64,000 nucleotides of DNA from an uncultured Clostridia bacterium. Lineage in GTDB: Bacteria; Bacillota; Clostridia; TANB77; CAG-508. The translations under genes were made by a program, and so were the position numbers. The notes under the pieces were generated by a model. That model saw nothing but the letters and a program-made list of their open reading frames with translations. It did not search any database and was not told the origin of the DNA. How positions within the stretch are numbered: position 1 is the stretch's first letter; the number at the start of each line of letters is the position of its first letter. The stretch covers positions 124,001-188,000 of the forward strand of contig CASYFC010000003.1 in assembly GCA_949482135.1 (NCBI GenBank), in the 5' to 3' direction. This document shows positions 4,088 through 53,984 of the stretch, piece after piece.

Positions 4088-4384
4088 AAATTGCTTTTTT
4101 GTGTGAGCAAATTACTGTCTTTATATAACTAATAGCATACTTTTAATAATATATTTTCTTTGCTACGAATTCTCGGCAATCCGACGTGTTTCATAGTAGA
4201 TTGTTAAATTTTAAAAGAAGTAGCGCTCTCAAAAGACAAGTTTGAGATTCCCTACTTCTTTTAAAATTAATTTACTAATAAAACACTCTGTTTACATTCG
4301 AATTCTTCACTCAGAGAATATATTATTAAAAGTATGCAAATAATTAAATATCAAAATATAATTTACTCACACAAATAACAATTT
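4088..4384 (+). repeat. Structured inverted-terminal-repeat element, copy A
   Basis: About 297 bases, non-coding, between convergent dapF and the MurE paralogue. The outer arms (4088-4155 and 4317-4384) are imperfect inverted repeats of about 68 bases; both end in a form of AAATTG..TTTGTGTGAG. Inside are three hairpins. H1 has CTAC/GTAG (4163-4166 with 4196-4199) around TCGG-CAAT-CCGA. H2 is a perfect 17-bp stem (4207-4223 with 4252-4268) capped by an internal loop and CTCAAA-AGACAAG-TTTGAG. H3 pairs CTCTG (4286-4290) with CAGAG (4312-4316). Copy B has the same plan in the same orientation. The right arm just overlaps the MurE stop codon. No clear target duplication was seen. The family is not recognised. 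Confidence 0.85.
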
Positions 4385-5888
4385 ATTGTATAGGTTTTCT
4401 TTCTCCTGATGCAATCATTTCATCAATTAATTTAGTTATAACTTTTCTCTCATCATAAGGATATTTAACTCCATTTTTTTCAAGATATAAGTCATGTCCA
4501 AGTCCTGGAATAACAATAATGTCTCCAGGATTTGCAATTGATATAGCATATCTAATTCCTTCTGTTCTATCAACAATAATTTTATAAGGCTTTCCAGTTG
4601 GAATAATTCCAACTTCAATTTCTTTCAATATTTTTAGCGGATCTTCTGTACGAACTTGATCTGACATTAAAACTGTGTAATCAGCTAAACGCCCAGAAAT
4701 TTCACCCATTACAGGACGTTTTGCGGCATCTCTGTCTCCACCAACACCCCATGCACAAATTATTTTTCCTTTGGCATAAGATTTTACTGCTGTTAAAATA
4801 CTTTCTAAGCTTGATGGAGTATGTGCATAGTCTATCATAATTGTTAAGCCAAGTTTATTTTCTACTAATTCACTTCTTCCTAAAACTTTAAGAGTTTTTA
4901 AAGCAGATCTTATTTCATCTGCTGTTACATCAAAATATGAACAAACAGCAATAGCACCAGCACTATTATAAACGCTGAATTTTCCTGGTATACAGGCTTC
5001 AATTCTTTCTTCTTTTCCACTGAACATAATTGAAAAATCTATATATGAATCAGTAATTATAATGTTATGTGGATTTACTTTGAAATTAGAATTATTTTCA
5101 AGAGAAAAAGATCGAATATCTTTCTCAGGAAGTAAATCTTTAACCTTTTTTACTGTTTCATCATCATTATTTATTACTGCATGTTTTGAGATTTTTAATA
5201 GTTCTAACTTACAATTAAAATAATCTTCCATTGATGGATGTTCTTTTGGACTTATATGATCTTCTGTTAAATTTGTAAATAATCCTACATCAAATTCACA
5301 ACCTGTAACTCTGTCAAGTTTCATAGCTTGTGATGAAACTTCTATAATTGCTACATCAACATTTTTTTCAACCATCATAGATAAATATTTTTGGATTTCG
5401 ATACTTTCAGGAGTTGTCCTATCGGTATCTTCAATTTTTTCATCATTAATATAAATTGCGATACTTCCAATTAAACCAACATTTAAACCATGTTTTTGTA
5501 AAATTGATTTTACCATGAAAGTAGTTGTTGTTTTTCCTTTTGTTCCTGTAATTCCGATAAGTTTTAATTTTTTTGAAGGATTATCATAGAAATTACAAGC
5601 AGTTTGTGCTAATGCTTTTCTAGTATTTTTAACAGAAATAGCAGGCATGTTGGCTGGAATGTTTATGGAATTTAAATCAACATCAGGTTCAACAATTACT
5701 GCTGTAGCACCATTTTTTATAGCATCTGGAATAAATTCAATACCATTTTTGGTAAATCCATTAATTGCTATAAAAAGTCCTCCTTCTTTAATTTTTCTTG
5801 AGTCAGAATGTATATTAGTTATATCTAAATTTAGATCACCAACTTTATTTATTACTTCTACCTCAGAAATTAATTTATTAAGTAACAT
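4383..5888 (-). CDS. MurE-like UDP-MurNAc-tripeptide ligase, variant specificity motif
   Basis: A 501-residue Mur ligase that would add the third stem-peptide residue to UDP-MurNAc-L-Ala-D-Glu. It shows the MurE N-terminal UDP-binding domain, the ATP loop GTKGKTTTT, RTTPES, the magnesium/carbamyl-lysine region around YFNCKLELL, and a C-terminal domain. The specificity site reads SDQVRTEDP where meso-diaminopimelate enzymes have DNPRTEDP; the second MurE at 58494 has the standard DNPR. The substrate may therefore differ, or the gene may serve a special pathway. Start: GGAGGG precedes ATG-ACT-ATG, and the second ATG (5888) has proper spacing. A consensus promoter lies just upstream. Confidence 0.85.
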   Translation of the reverse strand: MLLNKLISEVEVINKVGDLNLDITNIHSDSRKIKEGGLFIAINGFTKNGIEFIPDAIKNGATAVIVEPDVDLNSINIPANMPAISVKNTRKALAQTACNFYDNPSKKLKLIGITGTKGKTTTTFMVKSILQKHGLNVGLIGSIAIYINDEKIEDTDRTTPESIEIQKYLSMMVEKNVDVAIIEVSSQAMKLDRVTGCEFDVGLFTNLTEDHISPKEHPSMEDYFNCKLELLKISKHAVINNDDETVKKVKDLLPEKDIRSFSLENNSNFKVNPHNIIITDSYIDFSIMFSGKEERIEACIPGKFSVYNSAGAIAVCSYFDVTADEIRSALKTLKVLGRSELVENKLGLTIMIDYAHTPSSLESILTAVKSYAKGKIICAWGVGGDRDAAKRPVMGEISGRLADYTVLMSDQVRTEDPLKILKEIEVGIIPTGKPYKIIVDRTEGIRYAISIANPGDIIVIPGLGHDLYLEKNGVKYPYDERKVITKLIDEMIASGERKPIQ

Positions 5889-5927
5889 AGTCATCCCTCC
5901 AATTCTTACAAAGGTTACTATGCGTGG

Positions 5928-5956
5928 ATTATATAACTAAATAGAACGATTTGCAA
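5928..5956 (-). promoter_or_regulatory. Promoter of the MurE-like gene
   Basis: On the minus strand TTGCAA (5951-5956), a 17-base spacer and a perfect TATAAT (5928-5933) lie about 40 bases before the start at 5888. Confidence 0.75.
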
Positions 5957-5961
5957 GCAAA

Positions 5962-6009
5962 AGTGTCCACAAATGTTTCGAGGCGATACCTCTAACAGAT
6001 GTGGACACT
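5962..6009 (-). terminator. Branched hairpin, probable terminator of the small membrane gene
   Basis: AGTGTCCACA (5962-5971) pairs perfectly with TGTGGACACT (6000-6009). Inside, TGTT/AACA and GAGG/CCTC form a second stem. Read on the minus strand it ends in TTTT, so it can terminate the gene at 6047-6226. The GC content is higher than its surroundings. Confidence 0.6.
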
Positions 6010-6046
6010 CTTGTGCTGGCTATAATTATTTGCCAGCAAGGAATTG

Positions 6047-6226
6047 CTAAAAGATTTTTGCCAGCAGAATAATAATTATCAGGATTACTGCTGTGATGAA
6101 CTTGTGGTCCATCATGACTGAGAACAGCCATAAGATGGGAGTGAGCAAAAGCGCCCAAAGGGACAGGAAGATTTCCAGCGCTACAGGGGCGACGATGATA
6201 AAAAGTACGAGATAAAGCAACCACAT
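6047..6226 (-). CDS. Small hydrophobic membrane protein
   Basis: 59 residues, nearly all hydrophobic, with two predicted membrane helices (about 1-35, perhaps kinked at the proline in APVAL, and 42-59) joined by a short MMDHKF turn. The ATG at 6226 is preceded by AAAGGAGCT at good spacing. Base composition and codon use (CTG, GCC, CTC) are clearly GC-richer than neighbouring genes, as for five other isolated genes in the window. It has its own upstream TATAAT and downstream hairpin. No family recognised and no function can be assigned. An overlapping longer minus-strand frame is discarded because it lacks a start signal. Confidence 0.6.
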   Translation of the reverse strand: MWLLYLVLFIIVAPVALEIFLSLWALLLTPILWLFSVMMDHKFITAVILIIIILLAKIF

Positions 6227-6450
6227 AATAATAGCTCCTTTCAAAATTGTGAACGTACAACTTATATAAATATTATACCATATTTATATAAAAAAATATA
6301 TAGTATAGTAATGTTTTAGTAAAATAACTAATAAAATAAAAAAAAAATAGTGTTTTTTATAGACATTTTTTATAAATTTATATATAATAATGAAAAATGT
6401 TGACGAATTGTCACTGCAACATTTTAATAACTTTAGGGGGCAGTATTTAT

Positions 6451-8385
6451 ATGTATGAGAGAAGTGCTATCGTATTAGAAAGATATTTCGATAATTTACT
6501 TAATTATAGAAGAGAATGTAATTTAAGAGATAATTACAATAATTACTGTGAACTTGTTGAAAAATTAGAAAAATATCAAATTAATTATCAAAAAGAAGTT
6601 GCTGCGACAAAAGAGTATAATACAAGTTTAGAGAAAATAAAACAGATTCAATTAGCGCAAAAAGGGTTATACAAAAAAAGTGCTAAATTAGAATATGATA
6701 GAAATTTGCTATTTAATAACTTAGATGGAAAAATTGAAGATATAAGAAAATGTATTGAAAAAATAGAAGAAGATGTTCAAGAAAATAATGCATCAATGCA
6801 AGAAACAAAAGAAAATTTGTTGAGTGCATTAGAAGATTATAATGAAAAAAGATTTGAACTATCAAAATGCAAGAGATATAAAAAAATGGCTGAAAATGAT
6901 TATAATGAATTATATGAAATTTCAAAAAATAATTATGATGGCATAACTGCAGAGAATATTGCCGAGGCTAAAGCATTTGCAAAGTTTGATGATGAATCTG
7001 ATATTATAGAAACATTATCACAAAATGGTAAAGATGAAAAAATACCATTTAATGAGGAAGTAATCGAATGTGCAACAAAATTTGGAATAGAAATTGCAAA
7101 AAAAGAGGCTGCATCATATTTAGTTATATACGATAAAATGACTAAATTATTATCAGATATAGATGATGGAACAGCAAAAATAAATCTACATAAAAAATAT
7201 GTTAGAAATGAAAAAGCAAAAATAGATTTTATATTATCAGTAAAAGAATACCAAGTACAATTTTTAGATTATGAAAGAATGACAGTTATACATGGTAGAA
7301 AATCTCATAATAGATTGATGAGTGAAGCTTGTGAAAACTTTAATACAGATATTGCTCAAATAGATAATTTATATGAACTATTATTAAAAGAAATTTCTAA
7401 CAAGGCTACCAAAAAAGCTTATAAGGAACTTTATAATAAATCATATTTAACAGACATAAAAGAAAAGGAAGAGAAATTCAAAAAAGAAAAAAATCGTGTA
7501 AATTTAAATACTGCAACATTAATAAATTCAAACTATTGGAGAATTGATGGAATAAAAGGTATTTATACAACATTTTATAAAAATGTATCTGAAGTATTTG
7601 GAAGAGATGTTGCTGAATTTGATATTCCTAAAGAATTTGATTCAGATAATATTTTTGAAGAAACAACAGCACCTGTAGAAGAAGAACAAAATGAAGAAAC
7701 AGAAGTAGAAGCAGAAGTTGTAGAAAAAATTCCATTCCAAATAGAGGAAGTATATGAAGAAGAATTTGATGAATATGTAGATGATGATATTGCAGAAATT
7801 CTTAAAGAAGATAATAATGTACAAGAAAATATTGAAGATGATGAAGAAGAAACACAAACTTATAATAAAAAAGATATTTTCGCTACAATAGATTTCTCAG
7901 AAGAAGATGATGATATAGACGAAGAAGAGGATGAAGATGATGAAGAAAATACACCATTTTCTTCCAATAATGTTACTCCAATTAAATTTGGTTTTGATAA
8001 TGATGAAGAAATAGATGAAGAGTTTGACATTTTTGGAGATAAATATAAAGAAATTGATTTTACAGAAGCTAATGTAATTGCGGCAAAATCAAAAGTAGAA
8101 GAAGAACTAAATGTTGAAGCTAAAAAAGTAGTTAGAATTCCAAAAAAAGTAAAAAGTGAAAATATTTTTAAAAAAGTTGAATTAGATGATGATTTACCAT
8201 ATGAAGTTGAAGAAGATGAAGTAAAATTATTTGATAATTTAAATCAAGCACAAAACAATGATTTAAATGAAATTGAAGATTTTGATTTAACTAAAGAAAC
8301 TGCTAAAAGAAGTGGTGGAGTATTTGGTAAATTGAAGAAAATAACTGGAAGCAAGAAAAATAAATTTACAGATGATATATGGTAG
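6451..8385 (+). CDS. Large acidic coiled-coil protein, unknown function
   Basis: 644 residues from an ATG eight bases after TAGGGGG. Residues 1-400 are rich in Lys, Glu, Asn and Tyr, with heptad-like stretches suggesting long coiled coils. About 410-560 are extremely acidic and probably disordered, with runs of Glu/Asp. The last 70 residues turn basic, ending GGVFGKLKKITGSKKNKF. No signal peptide or membrane helix, so presumably cytoplasmic. The alternation of coiled coil, acidic linker and basic tail resembles scaffold proteins, but no family is recognised. It ends at a terminator, so it is probably monocistronic. Confidence 0.75.
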   Translation: MYERSAIVLERYFDNLLNYRRECNLRDNYNNYCELVEKLEKYQINYQKEVAATKEYNTSLEKIKQIQLAQKGLYKKSAKLEYDRNLLFNNLDGKIEDIRKCIEKIEEDVQENNASMQETKENLLSALEDYNEKRFELSKCKRYKKMAENDYNELYEISKNNYDGITAENIAEAKAFAKFDDESDIIETLSQNGKDEKIPFNEEVIECATKFGIEIAKKEAASYLVIYDKMTKLLSDIDDGTAKINLHKKYVRNEKAKIDFILSVKEYQVQFLDYERMTVIHGRKSHNRLMSEACENFNTDIAQIDNLYELLLKEISNKATKKAYKELYNKSYLTDIKEKEEKFKKEKNRVNLNTATLINSNYWRIDGIKGIYTTFYKNVSEVFGRDVAEFDIPKEFDSDNIFEETTAPVEEEQNEETEVEAEVVEKIPFQIEEVYEEEFDEYVDDDIAEILKEDNNVQENIEDDEEETQTYNKKDIFATIDFSEEDDDIDEEEDEDDEENTPFSSNNVTPIKFGFDNDEEIDEEFDIFGDKYKEIDFTEANVIAAKSKVEEELNVEAKKVVRIPKKVKSENIFKKVELDDDLPYEVEEDEVKLFDNLNQAQNNDLNEIEDFDLTKETAKRSGGVFGKLKKITGSKKNKFTDDIW

Positions 8386-8390
8386 AATAT

Positions 8391-8422
8391 AAAGTGCATT
8401 TCTATATGAAATGCACTTTTTT
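8391..8422 (+). terminator. Intrinsic terminator
   Basis: Perfect 12-bp stem (8391-8402 with 8408-8419), loop TATAT, then a T-run; ends the coiled-coil gene. Confidence 0.88.
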
Positions 8423-8538
8423 AGTAAATAAATCTAAAATTTCTATAAAATTCTATTAAAATAAATATAAAAACCACTTGATAAGCAAAAGTATAGATGT
8501 TATAATTATTATGATAAATTGTATAGAAAGGCAAAAAA

Positions 8539-9282
8539 ATGAACCAAATTCTAGTTTCTGAGAAATTGTATATTACACCAGAACTAAAAAGGAAAAAAAG
8601 AATGTACAAAATAGACTTCTTTATTTCCATTTTTTTAGTGTGCATTTTATTCTCTTATTATATATATGCAGAATATGATAAAAACAAAAATGAAGCAATT
8701 TCACAAGAAATATTATCTAATTTATCATTTGAAGATAATGTTGTTGATAATACAACAATAAAATTTGCAAACAATTCAATTGTTGTCATATTAAATACTG
8801 AAGATCCAACTGAAGTTGTATATACACAACCAGTAGAAGACCAAGATCCAACAGATAATAAACAATGGAGAACAACACAAAATGGAACAAGATATTATGC
8901 TATGGCATCAATAAAAATACCTTCAATAGATTGTGAATATCCTATATTAAATGAAACAACAGATGAATTATTAAAAATTGCACCTTGTAAATTCTGGGGA
9001 GCAGATCCAAATGAAGTGGGTAACTTTTGTATAGTTGGACACAATTATAGAAGTGATAAATTCTTTAGTCATGTACCAGAATTACATATAGGAAATAATA
9101 TAGAAATAACAGATTTAACTGGTCAAACAATTATATATAAAGTATATGATAAATATGTAGTTGAACCAGATGATACAGATTGTACAACACAAAGAACAAA
9201 TGGCTTAAAAGAAATAACATTAATAACATGTACTGATGATAGTAAACAAAGGGTTATAGTAAAAGCGAGAGAGGCTGAATAA
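8539..9282 (+). CDS. Sortase, class D-like
   Basis: 247 residues. A cytoplasmic N-tail and one membrane helix (about 30-48) leave the catalytic domain outside the cell, where it would cleave a sorting signal and link the protein to peptidoglycan. The domain begins near ASIKIPSIDCEYPIL. Catalytic histidine is in VGHNYRSDKFF (about residue 172), cysteine in LITCTDD (about 235), followed by the arginine in KQRVIV. Single-gene setting, one helix and a short C-terminus fit class D rather than pilus class C. No LPxTG substrate is adjacent; the nearest candidates are in the pilus locus 14 kb away. Confidence 0.85.
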   Translation: MNQILVSEKLYITPELKRKKRMYKIDFFISIFLVCILFSYYIYAEYDKNKNEAISQEILSNLSFEDNVVDNTTIKFANNSIVVILNTEDPTEVVYTQPVEDQDPTDNKQWRTTQNGTRYYAMASIKIPSIDCEYPILNETTDELLKIAPCKFWGADPNEVGNFCIVGHNYRSDKFFSHVPELHIGNNIEITDLTGQTIIYKVYDKYVVEPDDTDCTTQRTNGLKEITLITCTDDSKQRVIVKAREAE

Positions 9283-9300
9283 AACATTCTAATAAATATT

Positions 9301-9337
9301 AAAGGACTTAGCGAAAATTTTTCGTTAAGTCCTTTTT
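9301..9337 (+). terminator. Intrinsic terminator
   Basis: A 15-bp stem starting AAAGGACTTA with one G-T pair, ending in TTTTT; follows the sortase gene. Confidence 0.9.
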
Positions 9338-9735
9338 GGTAGTTACAAATTAAATTATATGTATTTATTTACGAACAAACATTCTTTTTTATAAAGAAAA
9401 ATAAAATAGGAATTATTATTGTTTTCTTTTACAAATATAATAAAATGTAAGTGAAAATTTAATAAAAATAATTTTTGTACTTAAAAATGTAATATATTTG
9501 AAATAGAAAAACTTGTGATCTTACAGTTACAATAGGTATGAATTTTTAACAAAATTTAACAAAGAAAATAATGTAAAAAGTAACTAGCAAATAATGCTTA
9601 TATATCAAGACTTAGTAAGAATTGGAAACATAAAAAGTATGAATTTGACATTACTTTTTAAAGTGTTAAAATCTAATCATGAGTTGAATACAAAAGATTA
9701 TAAAAATAAAGGTTCTATAGTGGAGGAAAATTGAA
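9338..9735 (+). promoter_or_regulatory. nrdD upstream region with promoter
   Basis: About 400 AT-rich bases without a credible gene. A promoter is visible at 9645-9672: TTGACA, a 16-base spacer, TAAAAT. It would give a 5' leader of about 60 bases ending in TGGAGGA before nrdD. I looked for paired NrdR boxes and for a cobalamin riboswitch and saw neither. The rest shows nothing I can name. Confidence 0.55.
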
Positions 9736-11877
9736 ATGAAAGTAATCAAAAGAGATGGAAGAAAAGTTGAATATAATAGTGATAAAATAGTAATTGCTAT
9801 TAGTAATGCAAACAAAGAAGTTGGTGGAAAAGATAAAATATCTAGATCATCAATTGAATTTATAACAAAATATATAGAAAGTTTGAACAAACCATCAATG
9901 TCTGTTGAGGAAATACAAGACATTATAGAACGTAAATTAATGGAATTTGGTAAATTTACATTAGCGAAAAAATATATATTATATAGAGATAAACATGCGA
10001 TGATTCGTGAAGCAAATTCAACAGATGAAAGTATATTAAGTTTAGTAAGAAATGCAAATAAAGAAACAATGGAAGAAAACAGTAATAAAAATGCTGTATT
10101 AGTTTCAACACAAAGAGATTTAATTGCAGGTGAATGTTCAAAAGATTTAGCAGATAGATTAATGCTTCCTGAAAGAATTGTTAAAGCTCATAATGATGGA
10201 GTTTTACATTTCCATGATAAAGATTACTTTGTTCAACCAATGCATAACTGCTGTTTAGTAAACATAGGAGATATGCTTGATAATGGAACAGTTATGAATG
10301 GAAAGATGATTGAAAGTCCAAAAAGCTTCCAAGTTGCTTGTACAGTTATGACACAAATAATTGCAGCAGTAGCTAGTAGTCAATATGGTGGACAATCAGT
10401 AGATATACGTCATTTAGGTAAATATTTAAGAAAAACATATGATAAAGTATATAAAAAGAGATTTTTAGGATATGTTGAAAAAGGATATTCTAAAGAAGAA
10501 GCAAATGAGAGAGCTAGAGAAGATGCAATAGAAAGAAGACAAGAAGATTTATCTTCTGGTGTTCAAACAATTCAATATCAAATCAACACTTTAATGACTA
10601 CAAATGGACAAAGCCCATTTGTTACAATATTCATGTTCTTAGATAAAGATGATGAATACATTGAAGAAAATGCAATGATTATTGAAGAAATTTTAAAACA
10701 AAGACTACAAGGTATAAAGAATGATAAAGGTGTATATATAACACCTGCATTCCCAAAATTAATATATGTATTAGATGAAAATAACTGCTTAAAAGGTGGA
10801 AAATATGATTATTTAACAAAACTTGCAGTTAAATGTTCATCAAAGAGATTATATCCAGATTATATCTCAGCAAAAATAATGAGAGAAAACTATGAAGGAA
10901 ATGTATTCAGTCCAATGGGATGTAGAAGTTTCTTATCTCCATGGAAAAATGAAAAAGGAGAATATGTTTTCGAATCTAGGTTTAATCAAGGTGTTGTAAG
11001 TATAAACTTACCACAAATAGGAATTATAGCAAATGGTGACGAAGAGAAGTTCTGGAAACTATTTAATGAAAGATTAGAATTATGCAAAGATGCATTAATG
11101 TGCAGACATGAAGCATTACTTGGAACAATGTCAGATGCTTCTCCAATTCATTGGCAATATGGAGCTATAGCTAGACTTGCAAAAGGTGAAAAAATTGATA
11201 AATTACTAAATTCATGTTTCTCTACAGTTTCTTTAGGATATATAGGACTTTATGAACTTACAAAATTAATGAAAGGTGTAAGCCATACAAATCCTGTTGG
11301 GGAAGAATTCTCTGTTAGAGTTATGCAACATATGAGAGATACTGTAGATAAATGGAAACAAGAAACAGGACTAGGATTTGCATTATATGGAACACCAGCA
11401 GAAAGTTTATGTTATAGATTTGCAAGAGTAGATAAAGAAAGATTTGGAGATATAGAAGATATTACAGATAAAGGATATTATACAAATTCATATCATGTTG
11501 ATGTTAGAGAAAAAATTAATGCATTTGATAAATTAAAATTTGAATCAAAATATCAACCAATTTCTTCAGGTGGAGCTATATCATATGTAGAAATACCAAA
11601 TATGAAAAACAATCTAGAAGCATTAGAAGAAATTGTTAAATTTATTTACGATAATATTCAATATGCTGAATTTAATACAAAATCAGATTATTGTCATGTT
11701 TGTGGATTTGATGGAGAAATAACAATTAATGAACAAAATGAATGGGAATGTCCACAATGTGGTAATAAAGACCACAACAAAATGAATGTTACTAGAAGAA
11801 CATGTGGTTACTTAGGAGAAAACTTCTGGAATGTAGGAAAAACAAAAGAAATAAAATCAAGAGTACTTCACATTTAA
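9736..11877 (+). CDS. nrdD: Anaerobic ribonucleoside-triphosphate reductase
   Basis: 713 residues. Reduces ribonucleoside triphosphates to deoxy forms by a glycyl radical, supplying DNA precursors without oxygen. Residues 1-90 are an ATP-cone allosteric domain (opening VIKRDGRKVEYNSDKI). The active-site region holds the expected HFHDKDYF and GCRSF segments. The C-terminus has a zinc site CHVCGF..CPQCG and the glycyl radical loop RRTCGYLGENFW. Length matches the family. The activase NrdG is next. Implies an anaerobic or facultative lifestyle. Confidence 0.97.
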   Translation: MKVIKRDGRKVEYNSDKIVIAISNANKEVGGKDKISRSSIEFITKYIESLNKPSMSVEEIQDIIERKLMEFGKFTLAKKYILYRDKHAMIREANSTDESILSLVRNANKETMEENSNKNAVLVSTQRDLIAGECSKDLADRLMLPERIVKAHNDGVLHFHDKDYFVQPMHNCCLVNIGDMLDNGTVMNGKMIESPKSFQVACTVMTQIIAAVASSQYGGQSVDIRHLGKYLRKTYDKVYKKRFLGYVEKGYSKEEANERAREDAIERRQEDLSSGVQTIQYQINTLMTTNGQSPFVTIFMFLDKDDEYIEENAMIIEEILKQRLQGIKNDKGVYITPAFPKLIYVLDENNCLKGGKYDYLTKLAVKCSSKRLYPDYISAKIMRENYEGNVFSPMGCRSFLSPWKNEKGEYVFESRFNQGVVSINLPQIGIIANGDEEKFWKLFNERLELCKDALMCRHEALLGTMSDASPIHWQYGAIARLAKGEKIDKLLNSCFSTVSLGYIGLYELTKLMKGVSHTNPVGEEFSVRVMQHMRDTVDKWKQETGLGFALYGTPAESLCYRFARVDKERFGDIEDITDKGYYTNSYHVDVREKINAFDKLKFESKYQPISSGGAISYVEIPNMKNNLEALEEIVKFIYDNIQYAEFNTKSDYCHVCGFDGEITINEQNEWECPQCGNKDHNKMNVTRRTCGYLGENFWNVGKTKEIKSRVLHI

Positions 11878-11934
11878 TCTAAGATACTTAAGATGAATAT
11901 GATGAAGTATACAAAAGTTAATTAGTTACAAAGG

Positions 11935-11999
11935 AGCCGTTTGAATTATTAATAATTTTGTATATAAAATTAAATTCAAACGGCTTAATTTATTTTTTT
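11935..11999 (+). terminator. Terminator-like hairpin between nrdD and nrdG
   Basis: A perfect 13-bp stem, AGCCGTTTGAATT (11935-11947) with its complement at 11973-11985, is followed by a T-rich tail ending in TTTTTTT. Since nrdG needs nrdD, partial termination may lower activase expression relative to the reductase, or nrdG may have its own promoter. Confidence 0.75.
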
Positions 12000-12016
12000 A
12001 CAGCGAGGTAAGAAAA

Positions 12017-12778
12017 ATGAACTATGCAGATATAAAAACAATAGATGTACAAGATGGAACAGGTGTTAGAGTTTCAATATATGTAAGTGGATGTCACTTT
12101 CATTGTAAAGGATGTCATAATAAAGAGGCTTGGGATTTTAACTATGGAAAAAAATTTGAAGATAGTACAATAGAGTATATATTGGAGCAAATGGATCATG
12201 ACTATATTGCAGGTCTTTCAATTTTAGGTGGAGAACCATTAGAGCTTGTTAATCAACAAGGATTAGTTAAATTAGTTGAAAAAGTAAAAGCAAAATATCC
12301 GGAAAAAACAATATGGTGTTATACTGGATATGATTTTGAAAAAGATGTTTATGGAAAGATGTATAAAGAATATGATTTTACAAAAAAGTTTCTAGAAAAT
12401 ATAGATATAATGGTAGATGGCGAATTTGTAGAAGAACAAAAACTTGTTAACTTGAAATTTAGAGGTTCTACTAATCAAAAGAAAATTGACGTGCAAGCAA
12501 GTTTAAAAGAAGGAAAAGTCGTACAATTAAAATTTGGTGATGAAGCAAGATATGAACAAACAGAAGAAACTAAAAATCCAAAAGTATTATTCTTTCATGA
12601 ATTTAAAAATGAAAACAGTGAAGTTATAGAGGAAGAACATGAAATTATTGCTGTTGCAAATAGCATAATTGCTAAAGATGAAAAAGTTACTGCTATTTCT
12701 CCAGCATTTGAAACAAAAGAAGTAGAAGAAAAAATTGCTGCTAAAGGTATTGGGACAAACAATGACAGTAATTTATAA
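12017..12778 (+). CDS. nrdG: Anaerobic RNR-activating radical SAM protein
   Basis: Radical SAM enzyme that installs the glycyl radical on NrdD using S-adenosylmethionine and a 4Fe-4S cluster. The cluster motif is CHFHCKGCHN near residues 26-35 (CxxxCxxC); GGEPLE follows as in the family. At 253 residues it is longer than usual NrdG (about 150-180). The extra C-terminal region of some 90 residues, from about KIDVQASL onward, is charged, has no recognised domain and keeps host-like codon use. GAGGT precedes the ATG. Confidence 0.93.
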   Translation: MNYADIKTIDVQDGTGVRVSIYVSGCHFHCKGCHNKEAWDFNYGKKFEDSTIEYILEQMDHDYIAGLSILGGEPLELVNQQGLVKLVEKVKAKYPEKTIWCYTGYDFEKDVYGKMYKEYDFTKKFLENIDIMVDGEFVEEQKLVNLKFRGSTNQKKIDVQASLKEGKVVQLKFGDEARYEQTEETKNPKVLFFHEFKNENSEVIEEEHEIIAVANSIIAKDEKVTAISPAFETKEVEEKIAAKGIGTNNDSNL

Positions 12779-12840
12779 ATATGGTATTAATGTTTTTAAT
12801 TTATAAAATTGCCTATTAGGCACAAAAGATGGAGGTATTA

Positions 12841-13788
12841 ATGGAAAAATTAAAAGTATTTGCATGCAGTAGTTCTGCAGAAAAATTTACAGATGAAATT
12901 TGTGAATATCTTAAAATTGAAAAAGGAAAAATCAATAGAATGAAATTTAAAAATGATAATAATTTTGTTCAGATTTTAGAATCAGTTAGAGATCAAGACA
13001 TATTTTTAGTTCAAACCACAGAACCACCAGTGAATGAAAGAATAATGGAATTACTAATTACTATAGATGCAGTAAAAAGAGCATCTGCAAAAAGAATTAC
13101 AGTAGTTTTACCATACTATATGTACGCAAGATCAGATAAAAAAGATCAACCAAGAATACCAGTTACAGCAAAATTATTTGCTAATTTAATTGAAGCAGCA
13201 GGAGCTGATAGGGTTCTTACATGCGACTTACACAACAATGCAATACAAGCATACTTTAATATAAACTGTGATGTTTTAACTGGACAAAGTTTACTTCAAA
13301 AGTATTTTGATAGTAAGAATATAGATAACAAAGTTGTTGTTGCTACAGATGCAGGAAGTTCAAAAAAAGCATACAAATATGCAAAGCATTTTGGTTGCCC
13401 AATTGCACTTGTAGATAAACGTAGAGATGGAAACGATGATAGAGCTATAGCAACAAGTGTTATAGGTGAGATAAAAGGAAAAAATGCTTTAGTATTTGAT
13501 GATGAGGTAGATACAGCTGGATCAATTATGGAAACTGCGGAAGTAATCAAAAGTTTTGGAGCAAATAAAGTTTATGTAGGATGTACACATGGAGTACTTT
13601 CTGGACCAGCAATTGAAAGAATACAGAACTCAGAAGTAGAAGAACTAGTTATGACTAGTACAATACCTCTACCAAAAGAAAAACAAATAGATAAAATAAC
13701 TGTTGTTTCAATTTCTGAGCTGTTTGGAGAAGCTATAAAAAGAATTCATGAAGAAACTTCAATAGGGGAACTATTTGAAACAAATTAA
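12841..13788 (+). CDS. prs: Ribose-phosphate pyrophosphokinase
   Basis: Makes PRPP from ribose 5-phosphate and ATP for purine, pyrimidine, NAD, His and Trp synthesis. 315 residues, the usual length. Visible are the CDLHNN metal/ATP histidine region, the VVATDAGSSKKAYKYAK segment and the PRPP loop VFDDEVDTAGS. The first ATG (12829) overlaps the GGAGG site, so the ATG at 12841 is chosen. The sequence departs from classical Bacillus-type Prs in several places (for example ACSSSAEKFTDEI at the start), suggesting a divergent subgroup. Probably transcribed alone or with nrdG. Confidence 0.93.
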   Translation: MEKLKVFACSSSAEKFTDEICEYLKIEKGKINRMKFKNDNNFVQILESVRDQDIFLVQTTEPPVNERIMELLITIDAVKRASAKRITVVLPYYMYARSDKKDQPRIPVTAKLFANLIEAAGADRVLTCDLHNNAIQAYFNINCDVLTGQSLLQKYFDSKNIDNKVVVATDAGSSKKAYKYAKHFGCPIALVDKRRDGNDDRAIATSVIGEIKGKNALVFDDEVDTAGSIMETAEVIKSFGANKVYVGCTHGVLSGPAIERIQNSEVEELVMTSTIPLPKEKQIDKITVVSISELFGEAIKRIHEETSIGELFETN

Positions 13789-13791
13789 GTA

Positions 13792-13821
13792 TTGACAATT
13801 TGCACTATTGTAATGTATAAT
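13792..13821 (+). promoter_or_regulatory. rpsU promoter
   Basis: TTGACA (13792-13797), 18-base spacer, TATAAT (13816-13821). It begins right after the prs stop codon and leaves a leader of about 95 bases before rpsU, ending in GGAAGGAGGGG. Confidence 0.85.
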
Positions 13822-13922
13822 ATTAAACAGTTAAATGATTCTAGAGGATTAATTACATATAAAAAAATATAAAATCAATCCCACAAGATCAAGTTTTTTA
13901 GGCTTCGGAAGGAGGGGAAAAC

Positions 13923-14093
13923 ATGTCAGAGGTAAAAGTTAATAATGGAAATATAGAAGACGCTCTTAAAAGATTTAAGAGACAATGCGCTAGAAATGGA
14001 GTTATTCAAGAAGTAAGAAAAAGAGAACATTATGAAAAACCTAGTGTAAGAAGAAAGAAAAAATCAGAGGCTGCAAGAAAAAGAAAATATTAA
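13923..14093 (+). CDS. rpsU: 30S ribosomal protein S21
   Basis: 56 residues, very basic. It opens [18 protein letters not shown], contains the S21 signature [20 protein letters not shown], and ends in a lysine/arginine tail [13 protein letters not shown]21 sits near the anti-Shine-Dalgarno end of 16S rRNA and helps initiation. A strong GGAGGGG site precedes the ATG. It has its own consensus promoter and terminator and so is a single-gene unit. Confidence 0.95.
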
Positions 14094-14100
14094 TAAAGTG

Positions 14101-14130
14101 AAGGATAGTTTTAACTATCCTTTATTTTGT
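14101..14130 (+). terminator. rpsU terminator
   Basis: Perfect 10-bp stem AAGGATAGTT (14101-14110) with its complement at 14113-14122, then TTATTTT. Confidence 0.85.
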
Positions 14131-14151
14131 ATATAAGAAAAGGAGAGTATT

Positions 14152-15157
14152 GTGATTGCAATAATATTAGCAATAGTAAATACAATAATTGTATATTTTA
14201 TATGTAGGCGGATATTACAAAGAATATAAAAAAAGTGGACTTATTATAGGAATATTTATTGGATTAACTATATTATTTTATATTATTATATCAAATGAAG
14301 AGAGCATAAAAAAAATATGTTTAACTAGTGAAGTTCCAATCTATGATAACATTATAATACTTTTACTTAGTATGGCAATTTCAATTAATTTAGATGGAAT
14401 AATTGCTATTTTCCTTCAAAAAATATATGAAAAAAGAATTATAAATCAATTTGAAAAAAAGTATAATGTAGAAGCATATGATTATTATAGAGATATTTTG
14501 AAAAACGAATCACCAGCAATACTTTCATATTGTTATAACAAAAAAATAAATGTTGAAGATGAAGTTGTAGCTACATTGTTAAATTTAAGACAAAAAAATA
14601 TTATTGAAATAAATGAAAATCAATTAAAAATTATTGGAGATATTAATCTTTTAGCAGAACATGAAAAATATATATTAAATAATTTCAAAAACATAGATAA
14701 AAAAGAATTCAAATATCGATTATTAAATGATTTAAAAAAACAAAGATATGTTTGTGAAAGAGATAAAAAGAAAGTAGATATTGTTTCTGTTATGGAAATA
14801 TTTATGATATGGATGATTTTTTATATACTTATGGTTATACCATTTTTTATGAATACTACTCTTTTAGGAGTTCTTGTATTTATGGCATATTTTTTAACTT
14901 TTGCAGGAATTGCAATATATAAATTTATACAATCAAAAATGAATTCTGTTACTAGAACTAGAAAAGCATTAGAATTAAGTGGAAAACTTTCCGGATTAAA
15001 AAAATATATACAAGATTATTCAAATATAAAAAATACAGGAATTGAAAACATAAATTTATTTGATGATTATGTTATATATGCAATTATTTTTGATATGAAA
15101 GGAAAACTTGATGATGATTGTAAAAAAATATATTTAAATATGAAAAATATTAGCTAA
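14152..15157 (+). CDS. DUF2207-like membrane protein, 5' end probably frameshifted
   Basis: The long frame (from 14189) encodes about 322 residues resembling the C-terminal part of DUF2207 proteins: membrane helices near the start (about 20-33 and 45-75), a cytoplasmic segment with LLNLRQKNIIEI and EKYILNNF, two helices near 205-250, then LSGLKKYIQDYSNI and a YAIIFDM end. The proper start signal is elsewhere: AAGGAGAG precedes GTG at 14152, in another frame, encoding a hydrophobic stretch that stops after 25 codons. A single-base indel around 14190-14210 would join them. Otherwise translation would need the poor TTG at 14189. Role of DUF2207 proteins is unknown. Confidence 0.65.
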
Positions 15158-15163
15158 AACAAA

Positions 15164-15208
15164 AAAAGAATATTTGAAGTATTTTCTTACTTCAAATATT
15201 CTTTTTTA
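15164..15208. terminator. Bidirectional terminator
   Basis: AGAATATTTGAAGTA (15167-15181) pairs with its complement at 15188-15202, flanked by A-run and T-run. It serves both the DUF2207-like gene and the convergent CAP gene. Confidence 0.88.
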
Positions 15209-15209
15209 T

Positions 15210-15959
15210 TTATTTTCCAATAAATAATTCAACAATAATTTTGCCATATGCAATACTATCTACAACTCCAATACCAGTGTAGTTATAATCATTACTTAAA
15301 ATGTTTTCTTTATGAGAATCTGAAGATATCCAAGCATCAAAAGCAGATTTAATACTAGAGTTCCCAGCAATATTTTCGCTTGCAGTTTTATAAGAAATAT
15401 TATGAGTTTTTAACATTTCAAATGGTGTACCATATGTTGGTGATATATGAGAAAAATAATTGTTTTGAGCAATATCTGTTGCTTTTAGTTTTGCAACATT
15501 TTGTAATTGCTCATCAATCTCAAGATTTGGTAAATTATTTTTTTGTCTTTCAGAATTTATTATTGATAGTAATTCTGATTCATCAGAAGTAAGGTTTATA
15601 TTGGAAACTTCTTCAATTGCTTCTGTATTAGTCGCAGCTGCCTTCATGTCATTTGTTGGCGTGATGTATTTACTATGTGCTGTACCTATTTTATTTTCCT
15701 CATTTTGAATTATATACCAATCACCTATTTTTCCAAAAATTCGTACATATTCATTTTTATTAAGTAAGTCTATAGATGAGAATGTAATTCCAGTTCCACT
15801 CCTCATATTTAAATAATCTGTATTTACAATTCCGAGAGAATAGTCAACTTGCTGGTAATCCTCCATACCAAAGCTTTTTGCAAATAAGCTTATTAATAAT
15901 ATTAAACTTATGAACACAAAAACTATTGTAATTTTATTTTTTACTAAAAATGATTTCAT
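15210..15959 (-). CDS. Secreted SH3-CAP domain protein (YkwD-like)
   Basis: 249 residues. An N-terminal membrane segment (about 9-28) acts as signal or anchor. Residues 42-100 form a bacterial SH3 domain (TDYLNMRSGTG..GDWYII..GTAHSKYI), typically a wall-binding module. Residues 125-249 are a CAP/SCP domain: LLSIINSERQKNNLP, the histidine in YFSHISP, SENIAG, WISSDSHKENIL and YTGIGV. Bacterial CAP proteins of this type occur in sporulation and envelope contexts; their biochemical role is unsettled. AAAGGAGGGA precedes the ATG. Repeat element B occupies most of the upstream region. Confidence 0.9.
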   Translation of the reverse strand: MKSFLVKNKITIVFVFISLILLISLFAKSFGMEDYQQVDYSLGIVNTDYLNMRSGTGITFSSIDLLNKNEYVRIFGKIGDWYIIQNEENKIGTAHSKYITPTNDMKAAATNTEAIEEVSNINLTSDESELLSIINSERQKNNLPNLEIDEQLQNVAKLKATDIAQNNYFSHISPTYGTPFEMLKTHNISYKTASENIAGNSSIKSAFDAWISSDSHKENILSNDYNYTGIGVVDSIAYGKIIVELFIGK

Positions 15960-16015
15960 AAAATCCCTCCTTTTATATTAAAATTTTAGACAGTTGAGGG
16001 AATTTTTAAACGTAC

Positions 16016-16370
16016 AATTTGTTATTTGTGTGAATAAATTATTGTTCATATTTAATTATTAGCATATTTTGTATAATATATGTTTTCATTACAAATTCTC
16101 GGTATTCCGCCGTATTTGCTGAAGCTGTTAAACTTTAGTTTCTACAGATTCAGTACTTCTATATTTATTTCATAAATATAGAAGCTACATTATTTTTTCA
16201 AAAAACAGTGCCCTCAAAAGACAAGTTTGAGATTCCCTCTTTTTTGAAAAAATATTCTACTAATAAAACACTTTGTTTACATTTGAATTTTTCATTCAAA
16301 TAATATATTATACAAAATTATGCTATCAGTTATATAGAAGAAATAATTTATTCATACAAATAGCAATTTT
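16016..16370 (+). repeat. Structured inverted-terminal-repeat element, copy B
   Basis: About 355 bases, non-coding, between divergent genes. Outer arms (16016-16082 and about 16303-16370) are imperfect inverted repeats ending in AATTTGTTATTTGTGTGA and AAATTGCTATTTGTATGA (right arm read in reverse). Shared with copy A: the segment starting AATTCTCGG (16094-16117), H2 with a 17-bp stem (16192-16208 with 16237-16253, one mismatch) capped by CTCAAA-AGACAAG-TTTGAG and ATTCC, the linker ACTAATAAAACAC, and H3 (TTTG 16272-16275 with CAAA 16297-16300). About 60 extra bases near 16119-16190 form an additional branch with a perfect 12-bp hairpin (16158-16169 with 16175-16186). Only short promoter regions remain on either side, which suggests insertion. 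Confidence 0.85.
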
Positions 16371-53924: not shown

Positions 53925-53984
53925 TAAAATTGCTATTTTGTAAGAAAATCATACAATAATTTTCTCATAGAAATAGCAATTTTA
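53925..53984. repeat. Minimal hairpin with the same termini as elements A and B
   Basis: A 60-base hairpin: perfect 14-bp outer stem (53925-53938 with 53971-53984), an inner 7-bp stem (53943-53949 with 53959-53965) and loop CATACAATA. Its right arm, read in reverse, begins AAATTGCTATTTCTATGAGA and so closely follows the right terminus of copy B (AAATTGCTATTTGTATGAAT). It has none of the internal hairpins H1-H3. Best explained as an internally deleted family member. Confidence 0.7.

What the first reader, a model, noticed from the sequence alone, without database searches (positions are those of the whole stretch)
4088..16370. Unrecognised family of structured, inverted-terminal-repeat elements
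Seen: two non-coding elements (4088-4384 and 16016-16370), same orientation, share termini, an AATTCTCGG segment, an identical apical hairpin, the linker ACTAATAAAACAC and a third hairpin. The outer arms, about 68-70 bases, pair with each other, closing a multi-branched fold. One copy lies between convergent genes, the other between divergent genes, so they are not tied to one neighbour. No transposase or reverse transcriptase is present. Inference: a MITE-like element moving by hairpin recognition, or a repeated large structured RNA. I cannot match it to a known RNA family from memory.
Basis: partly seen in the sequence, partly recalled or inferred. Interest (0 to 1): 0.85.

Follow-up and report, generated by a model that had tools for sequence, protein, structure and literature searches.

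The report
Palindromic mobile elements sharing one core
Two non-coding elements in this bacterial genome belong to a large family of palindromic DNA elements of Clostridia, with no match in Rfam, that share one conserved hairpin core inside several unrelated kinds of ends; relatives bear the footprints of DNA transposition, they are likely moved by borrowed transposases, and the core would likely act in the transcripts they sit in.

Summary
Window copies 4088-4384 and 16016-16369 are members of a family of palindromic elements. A covariance model of their core hits 18 of 53 genomes of the genus and 53 of 191 sampled from the order. In 245 genomes of the class it hits 3, all in one taxonomic family (the window's genome is counted in each). 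No Rfam family matches. The conserved part is an imperfect hairpin of about 150 nt with strong covariation and a near-invariant internal loop. It sits at the centre of long palindromes whose outer ends differ: three terminal-repeat classes plus GGGGACG-type outer palindromes. Two classes show 8-bp target duplications, so the family moves as DNA. In one genome the same inner unit of about 330 bp lies inside two unrelated outer palindromes, with a sharp border. The arms show no RNA-type G.U excess, so their pairing is probably kept at DNA level. Yet core-bearing copies lie in the sense of tandem flanking genes 60 to 20 and are enriched between convergent genes, pointing to an inferred transcript-level effect. 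I file it as a new, modular variant of the MITE kind; the mobilising enzyme was not found.

The parts
4088..4384 (+). Element copy 1 (terminal class C), between convergent DAP epimerase and Mur ligase genes; its last bases touch the Mur ligase stop codon
   Evidence: empty orthologous sites in G023 and G008
4088..4117 (+). 5' terminal repeat of copy 1 (AAATTGCTTTTTTGTGTGAG...)
   Evidence: shared ends of several copies in the genome
4355..4384 (+). 3' terminal repeat of copy 1 (...CTCACACAAATAACAATTT)
4161..4316 (+). Conserved core of copy 1
   Evidence: covariance model R2, 81.8 bits, E 5.4e-15; this copy is one of the 39 sequences the model was built from
4222..4253 (+). Apical hairpin with internal loop A (AGCGCTCTCA ... 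TTGAGATTCCCT)
   Evidence: near-invariant motif in 39 aligned family members; 37 of them were collected with a pattern that requires this motif
16016..16369 (+). Element copy 2 (terminal class C), between divergent CAP-domain and Big_7 genes
16207..16238 (+). Apical hairpin with internal loop A of copy 2 (AGTGCCCTCA ... TTGAGATTCCCT)
   Evidence: R2 match 16154-16301, 48.0 bits, E 1.9e-7, disturbed by the nested repeat
16118..16190 (+). Foreign two-hairpin repeat nested in the core of copy 2 (about 59-74 bp; edges uncertain)
   Evidence: absent from copy 1 and from the other G000 copies read; relatives at G000 C4, C6, C2 and in G033, G007
53926..53983 (.). Probable core-less mini-element with class C terminal repeats
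   Evidence: 29-base match to the 3' terminal repeat, E 6e-4; palindrome read by eye

Best explanation
The two window elements are copies of a family of palindromic, MITE-like DNA elements whose centre is a conserved, asymmetric hairpin core; they are likely mobilised in trans by transposases that recognise their outer terminal repeats, while the core likely acts in the host transcripts they sit in. SHOWN: the family, its core and covariation, its taxonomic range, three terminal-repeat classes plus GGGGACG-type outer palindromes around the same core, 8-bp target duplications for two classes, core-less relatives that also carry the duplication, orientation and position bias. INFERRED: a DDE-type transposase supplied by another element (none found). 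The terminal repeats suffice for movement, because 5 of 9 core-less class A elements (47-108 bp) carry target duplications. The two arms are kept complementary by DNA-level template switching between arms (quasi-palindrome correction). The core is a cargo module selected on the RNA sense strand, for example by making insertion next to a gene end or inside an operon tolerable through its effect on transcript ends or read-through.
For: Covariation of the core: 189 cells with both sides changed against 61.5 +/- 6.3 in shuffles, score 0.397 against 0.129 shuffled and 0.070-0.125 for slid partners. Range. Target duplications: class A, 12 of 22 terminal-repeat pairs have at least 7 of 8 identical flanking bases (0.5% in mismatched controls), with identity peaking at k=8, offset 0; class B, 7 of 24 against 1 of 552. 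DNA-level palindrome: over 141 copies G.U 368, A.C 452, against G.U 21, A.C 0 in 14 tRNAs of the same loci; one copy (L102) whose 3' arm holds the exact reverse complement of 48 nt of its 5' arm, while in a sister copy a 25-nt test stretch of that is found in the 5' arm only. Core conserved above arms: mean pairwise difference among 11 class B copies of one genome is core 1.6%, outer arms 11%, ends 20%. Same inner unit within two unrelated outer palindromes. Orientation 60 same, 20 opposite in tandem gaps (p 9e-6); convergent 40, divergent 19 against 28 and 62 in control gaps. Empty sites for copy 1 in two relatives.
Against: No autonomous element was seen among the terminal-repeat sites listed for G113 and G002 and the loci fetched; an IS1595-type transposase occurs in only 1 of 10 copy-rich genomes; other transposase families were not searched. 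The window copies (class C) show no clear target duplication (read by eye). No transcript data. In G113 alone G.U (42) exceeds A.C (24), and of the copy-pair comparisons at varying stem pairs 676 lose a Watson-Crick pair against 601 that keep one with both sides changed. Replication strand was not separated from transcription as the cause of the orientation bias (convergent and divergent sites: 18 agree, 12 disagree, 14 without a majority strand). Six of 22 class A pairs show at most 3 of 8 matching flanking bases, so some copies are old or their ends were misread.
Confidence: 0.62

Rival explanations
1. The core unit is itself a hairpin-seeking mobile module: it inserts into the centre (loop) of pre-existing palindromes such as MITEs, REP-like GGGGACG hairpins and terminators, and is then carried on by whatever terminal repeats surround it.
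For: In G113 the same ~330-bp inner unit (84-100% identical between classes in 15-nt steps, best of 13 shifts) lies within class A and class B palindromes, and identity falls to 0.45-0.68 (unrelated control 0.48) about 150 nt from the core motif on both sides (5 class A and 9 class B copies). Divergence among class B copies jumps from 0-7% to 16-26% near that border. GGGGACG hairpins exist without a core (L122, L184, L196) and with a core at their centre. Locus-specific outer stems flank near-identical units in other genomes.
Against: No filled and empty pair of the same palindrome was found; gene conversion between copies, or internal deletions between direct repeats (G002 L285 against L287), could give the same picture. 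The loci were chosen around cores, so the GGGGACG enrichment (22 of 44 sites within 450 bp of a core) is partly by design, and only 4 of the 22 far sites were seen to be paired.
Confidence: 0.3
2. A family of functional structured RNAs (regulatory or 3'-end RNAs) that happen to be multi-copy; the stems are kept by selection on RNA.
For: Strong covariation, near-invariant internal loop, sense-strand bias and gene-end enrichment, copies next to rpoC in G016 and G031, apparently between rpoB and rpoC (genes recognised by recalled motifs), copy 2 shared at the same place with G018, G.U above A.C in G113 alone.
Against: No pooled G.U excess over A.C (368 against 452) where tRNAs give 21 to 0; target duplications and copy-number bursts; complementary arms extend far outside the core and vary hugely between copies.
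Confidence: 0.2
3. Retroelement or RNA-mediated mobility (for example an intron-like or retron-like RNA).
For: Sense-strand bias in transcribed gaps; hairpin structure.
Against: Paired terminal inverted repeats with 8-bp target duplications in two classes; no Rfam match of any family at the element in the window or 12 loci. Reverse transcriptase presence was not tested.
Confidence: 0.04

Closest known systems
BOX and RUP elements of Streptococcus pneumoniae (PMC3049150, passages read)
   Same: Small intergenic repeats with terminal inverted repeats that hybridise to each other, extensive predicted secondary structure, modular build (BOX), over-representation between convergent genes, presumed mobilisation by IS elements.
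   Different: Different hosts. Here one core is shared by elements with several unrelated end classes, arms are long, variable and complementary, and the core carries asymmetric internal loops conserved across genera. Sequence relatedness to BOX or RUP was not tested.
bcr1-bcr18 repeats of the Bacillus cereus group (PMC3446304, passages read)
   Same: MITE-like intergenic repeats (bcr1-bcr3), some with conserved secondary structure (bcr10, bcr18), often part of UTRs or operon gaps.
   Different: Different host group; in the passages read no shared core across unrelated ends is described. Sequence not compared.
REP / BIME palindromes (start of the abstract of PMC3733652 in a search listing)
   Same: Palindromes; GGGGACG-type REP-like hairpins form the outer arms of some copies here (REP likeness is my recall).
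   Different: REPs are 20-40 bp; these elements are about 50-500 bp with terminal repeats and 8-bp duplications. RAYT (Y1) transposase presence was not tested.
Quasi-palindrome template switching (PMC7202029, abstract and passages read)
   Same: A known process that makes imperfect inverted repeats more perfect; would explain complementary, fast-changing arms and the L102 copy.
   Different: A mutational process, not an element; it does not explain the conserved asymmetric core.

Membership tests
MITE (non-autonomous DNA transposon) | Terminal inverted repeats | tested here: met
   Class A, B and C ends; GGGGACG outer inverted repeats in other genomes
MITE (non-autonomous DNA transposon) | Target site duplication | tested here: met
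   8 bp; class A 12 of 22, class B 7 of 24 pairs at 7 or more of 8. Not seen for the window's own class C copies
MITE (non-autonomous DNA transposon) | No transposase gene, short, multi-copy | tested here: met
   No ORF of 80 aa or more in the window copies; about 50-500 bp; up to at least 16 copies per genome (where only 16 candidates per genome were scored)
MITE (non-autonomous DNA transposon) | A transposase-bearing element with matching terminal repeats | tested here: inconclusive
   None seen among terminal-repeat sites listed and loci fetched in G113 and G002; IS1595 family in 1 of 10 genomes; other transposase families not tested
Known Rfam RNA family | Match at the curated gathering score | tested here: not met
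   No match in the window or at the element in 12 related loci; only weak hits far below gathering scores at E up to 5
Structured RNA maintained by selection on RNA | G.U pairs tolerated more than A.C mismatches in stems | tested here: not met
   Pooled G.U 368, A.C 452; tRNA control 21 to 0; but in G113 alone 42 to 24
REP / BIME with RAYT transposase | Y1 (RAYT) transposase gene in the genome | not tested
Group II intron or retron RNA | Reverse transcriptase partner and family-specific RNA motifs | tested here: inconclusive
   No Rfam match at the element; reverse transcriptase not searched

The most novel reading that the evidence does not exclude
A mobile 'palindrome-centre' module: a ~150-330-bp hairpin core that invades the centres of unrelated palindromes (MITEs, REP-like hairpins, terminators), turns them into larger mobile hairpins, rides on whatever transposase reads their outer ends, and protects the host transcript in the sense orientation - a parasite of hairpins.
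Probability: 0.28. Interest if true: 0.82.

Novelty: new variant of a known kind. Interest (0 to 1): 0.6.

Why it matters
Bacterial MITEs are usually defined by their ends. Here the conserved thing is the middle, shared by elements with unrelated ends across genera of uncultured Clostridia, so the unit of inheritance may not be the transposon. The family gives a natural set of well over a hundred long palindromes in which arm complementarity, core conservation and strand bias can be separated, and so makes two questions testable: how bacterial palindromes keep their arms matched, and whether hairpins are a landing site for mobile DNA. It also warns that covariation alone does not prove a functional RNA: this family passes covariation tests while its pooled stems fail the G.U test.

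Tried and rejected
A hit to a known RNA family was sought at gathering and at permissive thresholds and rejected. Phage, plasmid and viral-contig origins were sought and not found. An exact-pattern scan of named genome contigs for the linker found nothing. An early structural-RNA reading was dropped after the G.U against A.C count. Insertion solely into terminator loops was considered from the outer stems of several loci between L124 and L182, but no empty palindrome of the same locus was available, so it is kept only within a rival. A replication-strand explanation of the orientation bias was tried and left undecided. A first attempt at class B target duplications with a shorter end gave a blurred signal; the longer end resolved it, though several of its 24 pairs (from 31 loci given) have poor ends. 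Autonomous partners were sought between terminal-repeat pairs; the two wide spans looked into in G002 (L296, L297) hold what look by eye like ordinary genes (no domain search). The first tRNA control parsed nothing and was rewritten. Rows dropped: 20 copies at locus edges and 2 inside long ORFs of 161; ORF calls there are crude, and unlabelled loci were counted as separate genomes in the 34-to-7 genome tally, so that tally overstates independence. In one search the DAP epimerase end was not located by the script in three of seven relatives (L367, L368, L370) and one (L369) ends at a contig end; the model found no core in any of these four loci. The motif used to collect copies for favours canonical cores. 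Two remarks in my notebook are wrong or too wide: CAOJQV is G242, not G063, and 'all of gut/rumen' is not borne out by the titles.
Full report
What is there. Copy 1 (4088-4384) and copy 2 (16016-16369) are real, without an ORF of 80 aa or more, on the same strand, and fold far below shuffled sequence (z about -12 each). They align over their whole length apart from a 59-column stretch in copy 2. That stretch is part of another repeat of about 70 bp, with relatives in the same genome and in G033 and G007. The core model finds seven copies in the genome, and BLAST finds end fragments besides. One further palindrome in the window, 53926-53983, probably has the same ends without a core.

A family with a conserved core. 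Relatives in the genus keep the centre of the element but not the sequence of the stems. The alignment used for the model holds 39 sequences: 37 of 38 representatives (one truncated, L130, was left out) of 77 usable among 81 pattern matches, plus two G000 copies. It shows an imperfect hairpin with internal loops. Loop A is AGCGCC-CTCA / TGAG-ATTCCCT; 37 of the 39 were collected by a pattern that requires this motif, so its invariance there is partly by selection, although the search with the shorter model, built before that scan, also found it in other genomes. Loop B, nearer the base, has by eye TCGG opposite CATTC in many members. Of 32 named pairs 25 have a change on both sides; 189 cells changed on both sides against 61.5 +/- 6.3 in shuffles; score 0.397 against 0.129 shuffled and 0.070-0.125 with slid partners. 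No match was found in viral contigs with that motif or, with copy 2, in the phage and plasmid collections. The full core model R2 hits 18 of 53 genomes of the genus, 53 of 191 in an even sample of the order, all but one in one family, and 3 of 245 in an even sample of the class, all three in that family; the window's genome is among each. Only 16 candidates per genome were scored.

It moves as DNA. In G113 core-bearing elements are about 460-500 bp palindromes with two kinds of ends in one genome. Class A begins GTTACAATTCACA and class B TTTAAGTTTCGGTATTTTT; both strings are far above the reversed-pattern control in the genomes that bear them. For class A, 12 of 22 end pairs from G113 and G002 have at least 7 of 8 identical flanking bases, against 0.5% of mismatched pairs; identity peaks at eight bases and zero offset. 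Seven of the 12 contain a core. For class B (G113 and G242), 7 of 24 against 1 of 552, all seven with a core. Five of nine core-less class A elements (47-108 bp) also carry the duplication, so the core is not needed for movement. G113 also has class B elements that lost the core by different internal deletions. The window's own class C copies show no clear duplication. Copy 1 is missing in G023 and G008 between the same two genes (by reading). The relative with the most similar two flanking proteins, G065, has a truncated match of another subtype next to DAP epimerase at a contig end. Copy 2 has a counterpart at the same place in G018; the model found none within the loci of G016, G033, G057, G012, G066 and G065, though G065 starts another element about 500 bp away at a contig end.

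Modular build. In G113, class A and class B elements share an inner unit that is 84-100% identical in 15-nt steps out to about 150 nt from the core motif on each side; identity then drops to 0.45-0.68, near the unrelated control of 0.48 (5 and 9 copies). Among 11 class B copies the mean pairwise difference is 1.6% in the core, about 3% in the inner arms, 11% in the outer arms and 20% in the ends. In other genomes the outer arms are GGGGACG-type palindromes, which also occur without any core (L122, L184, L196), or locus-specific stems. In G000 one copy (C1:129027) lies inside a further outer inverted repeat (by eye).

DNA-level or RNA-level pairing. Over 141 copies the aligned arms hold 12,790 Watson-Crick pairs, 368 G.U, 452 A.C and 2,453 other mismatches (outer arms 224 G.U and 224 A.C; inner 144 and 228). 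Fourteen tRNAs from the same loci hold 268, 21, 0 and 0. This speaks against selection on RNA pairing as the cause of the covariation, though in G113 alone the count is 42 to 24. In G113, 68 of 206 stem pairs vary among 11 copies and 37 show two or more Watson-Crick types; 601 copy-pair comparisons keep a Watson-Crick pair with both sides changed and 676 lose it. One copy in G018 holds in its 3' arm the exact reverse complement of 48 nt of its 5' arm, while a sister copy has a 25-nt test stretch in the 5' arm only. Template switching at quasi-palindromes is a known process that produces this (PMC7202029, abstract and passages).

Where it sits. Of 161 distinct copies, 139 could be placed between two ORFs: 80 tandem, 40 convergent, 19 divergent. 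Gaps of 120-900 bp without an element in the same loci are 140, 28 and 62. In tandem gaps the core's reference strand has the sense of the genes in 60 and the opposite in 20 (p 9e-6). Copies in G016 and G031 lie next to rpoC, apparently between rpoB and rpoC, co-directional (genes recognised from recalled motifs). Convergent over-representation is reported for pneumococcal repeats (PMC3049150, passages). Replication strand was not cleanly separated from transcription, but neighbouring copies on G012 contigs C1 and C4 point opposite ways within about 10 kb, which argues for local gene direction.

Mechanism. I take the elements to be MITE-like palindromes moved in trans by transposases that read their outer ends (inferred; IS1595 was found in 1 of 10 copy-rich genomes, and no autonomous partner was seen). 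The arms are kept complementary by template switching (inferred). The core is retained because it has an effect on the transcript in one orientation (inferred from orientation, position and conservation). What that effect is was not tested.

Novelty. Searches of the held papers surfaced no description of this family; the library lacks most subscription papers. As a kind it belongs with MITE-like interspersed repeats such as BOX and bcr1. What is unusual is that the shared part is the middle, found inside several unrelated ends.

Noticed in passing
window 16118-16190; G000 C4:24670-24739, C6:79001-79054, C2:358047-358100, C2:359308-359351; L036, L057, L040: A second, smaller repeat family of two hairpins (TGCTGAAGCTGTTAAACTTTAG... 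/ CTTCTATATTTA..TAAATATAGAAG) spread in G000, G033 and G007; one copy is nested in the core of window copy 2.
   Followed up: partly
L120, L157, L183, L187 (CANRMR contigs): Near-identical elements lie just 5' of repeated short ORF cassettes rich in GGGGCGGACGCCT..GTCCGCCC-like palindromic repeats.
   Followed up: no
L137:5303-5660: Two cores in opposite orientation about 200 bp apart, a tail-to-tail pair resembling a BIME.
   Followed up: no
G065 contigs C2, C6, C26, C33, C35; several G113 contig ends: Several contigs of copy-rich MAGs end within or near these palindromes, so copy numbers may be underestimated.
   Followed up: no
L140:2123-2200 (-): Skipping-rope RNA (RF02924, 53.5 bits) on a contig that also carries a core element; not overlapping.
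   Followed up: no
G000 C15:2918-3066 (L270) and G002 L287, L288, L294, L295: A variant of loop A (GGCACCCTTCC / GAACTCTTTCC) in place of AGCGCCCTCA / TGAGATTCCCT.
   Followed up: partly
L358, upstream of the CAP-domain gene in G016: A (GA)n microsatellite in the region where window copy 2 sits in G000.
   Followed up: no
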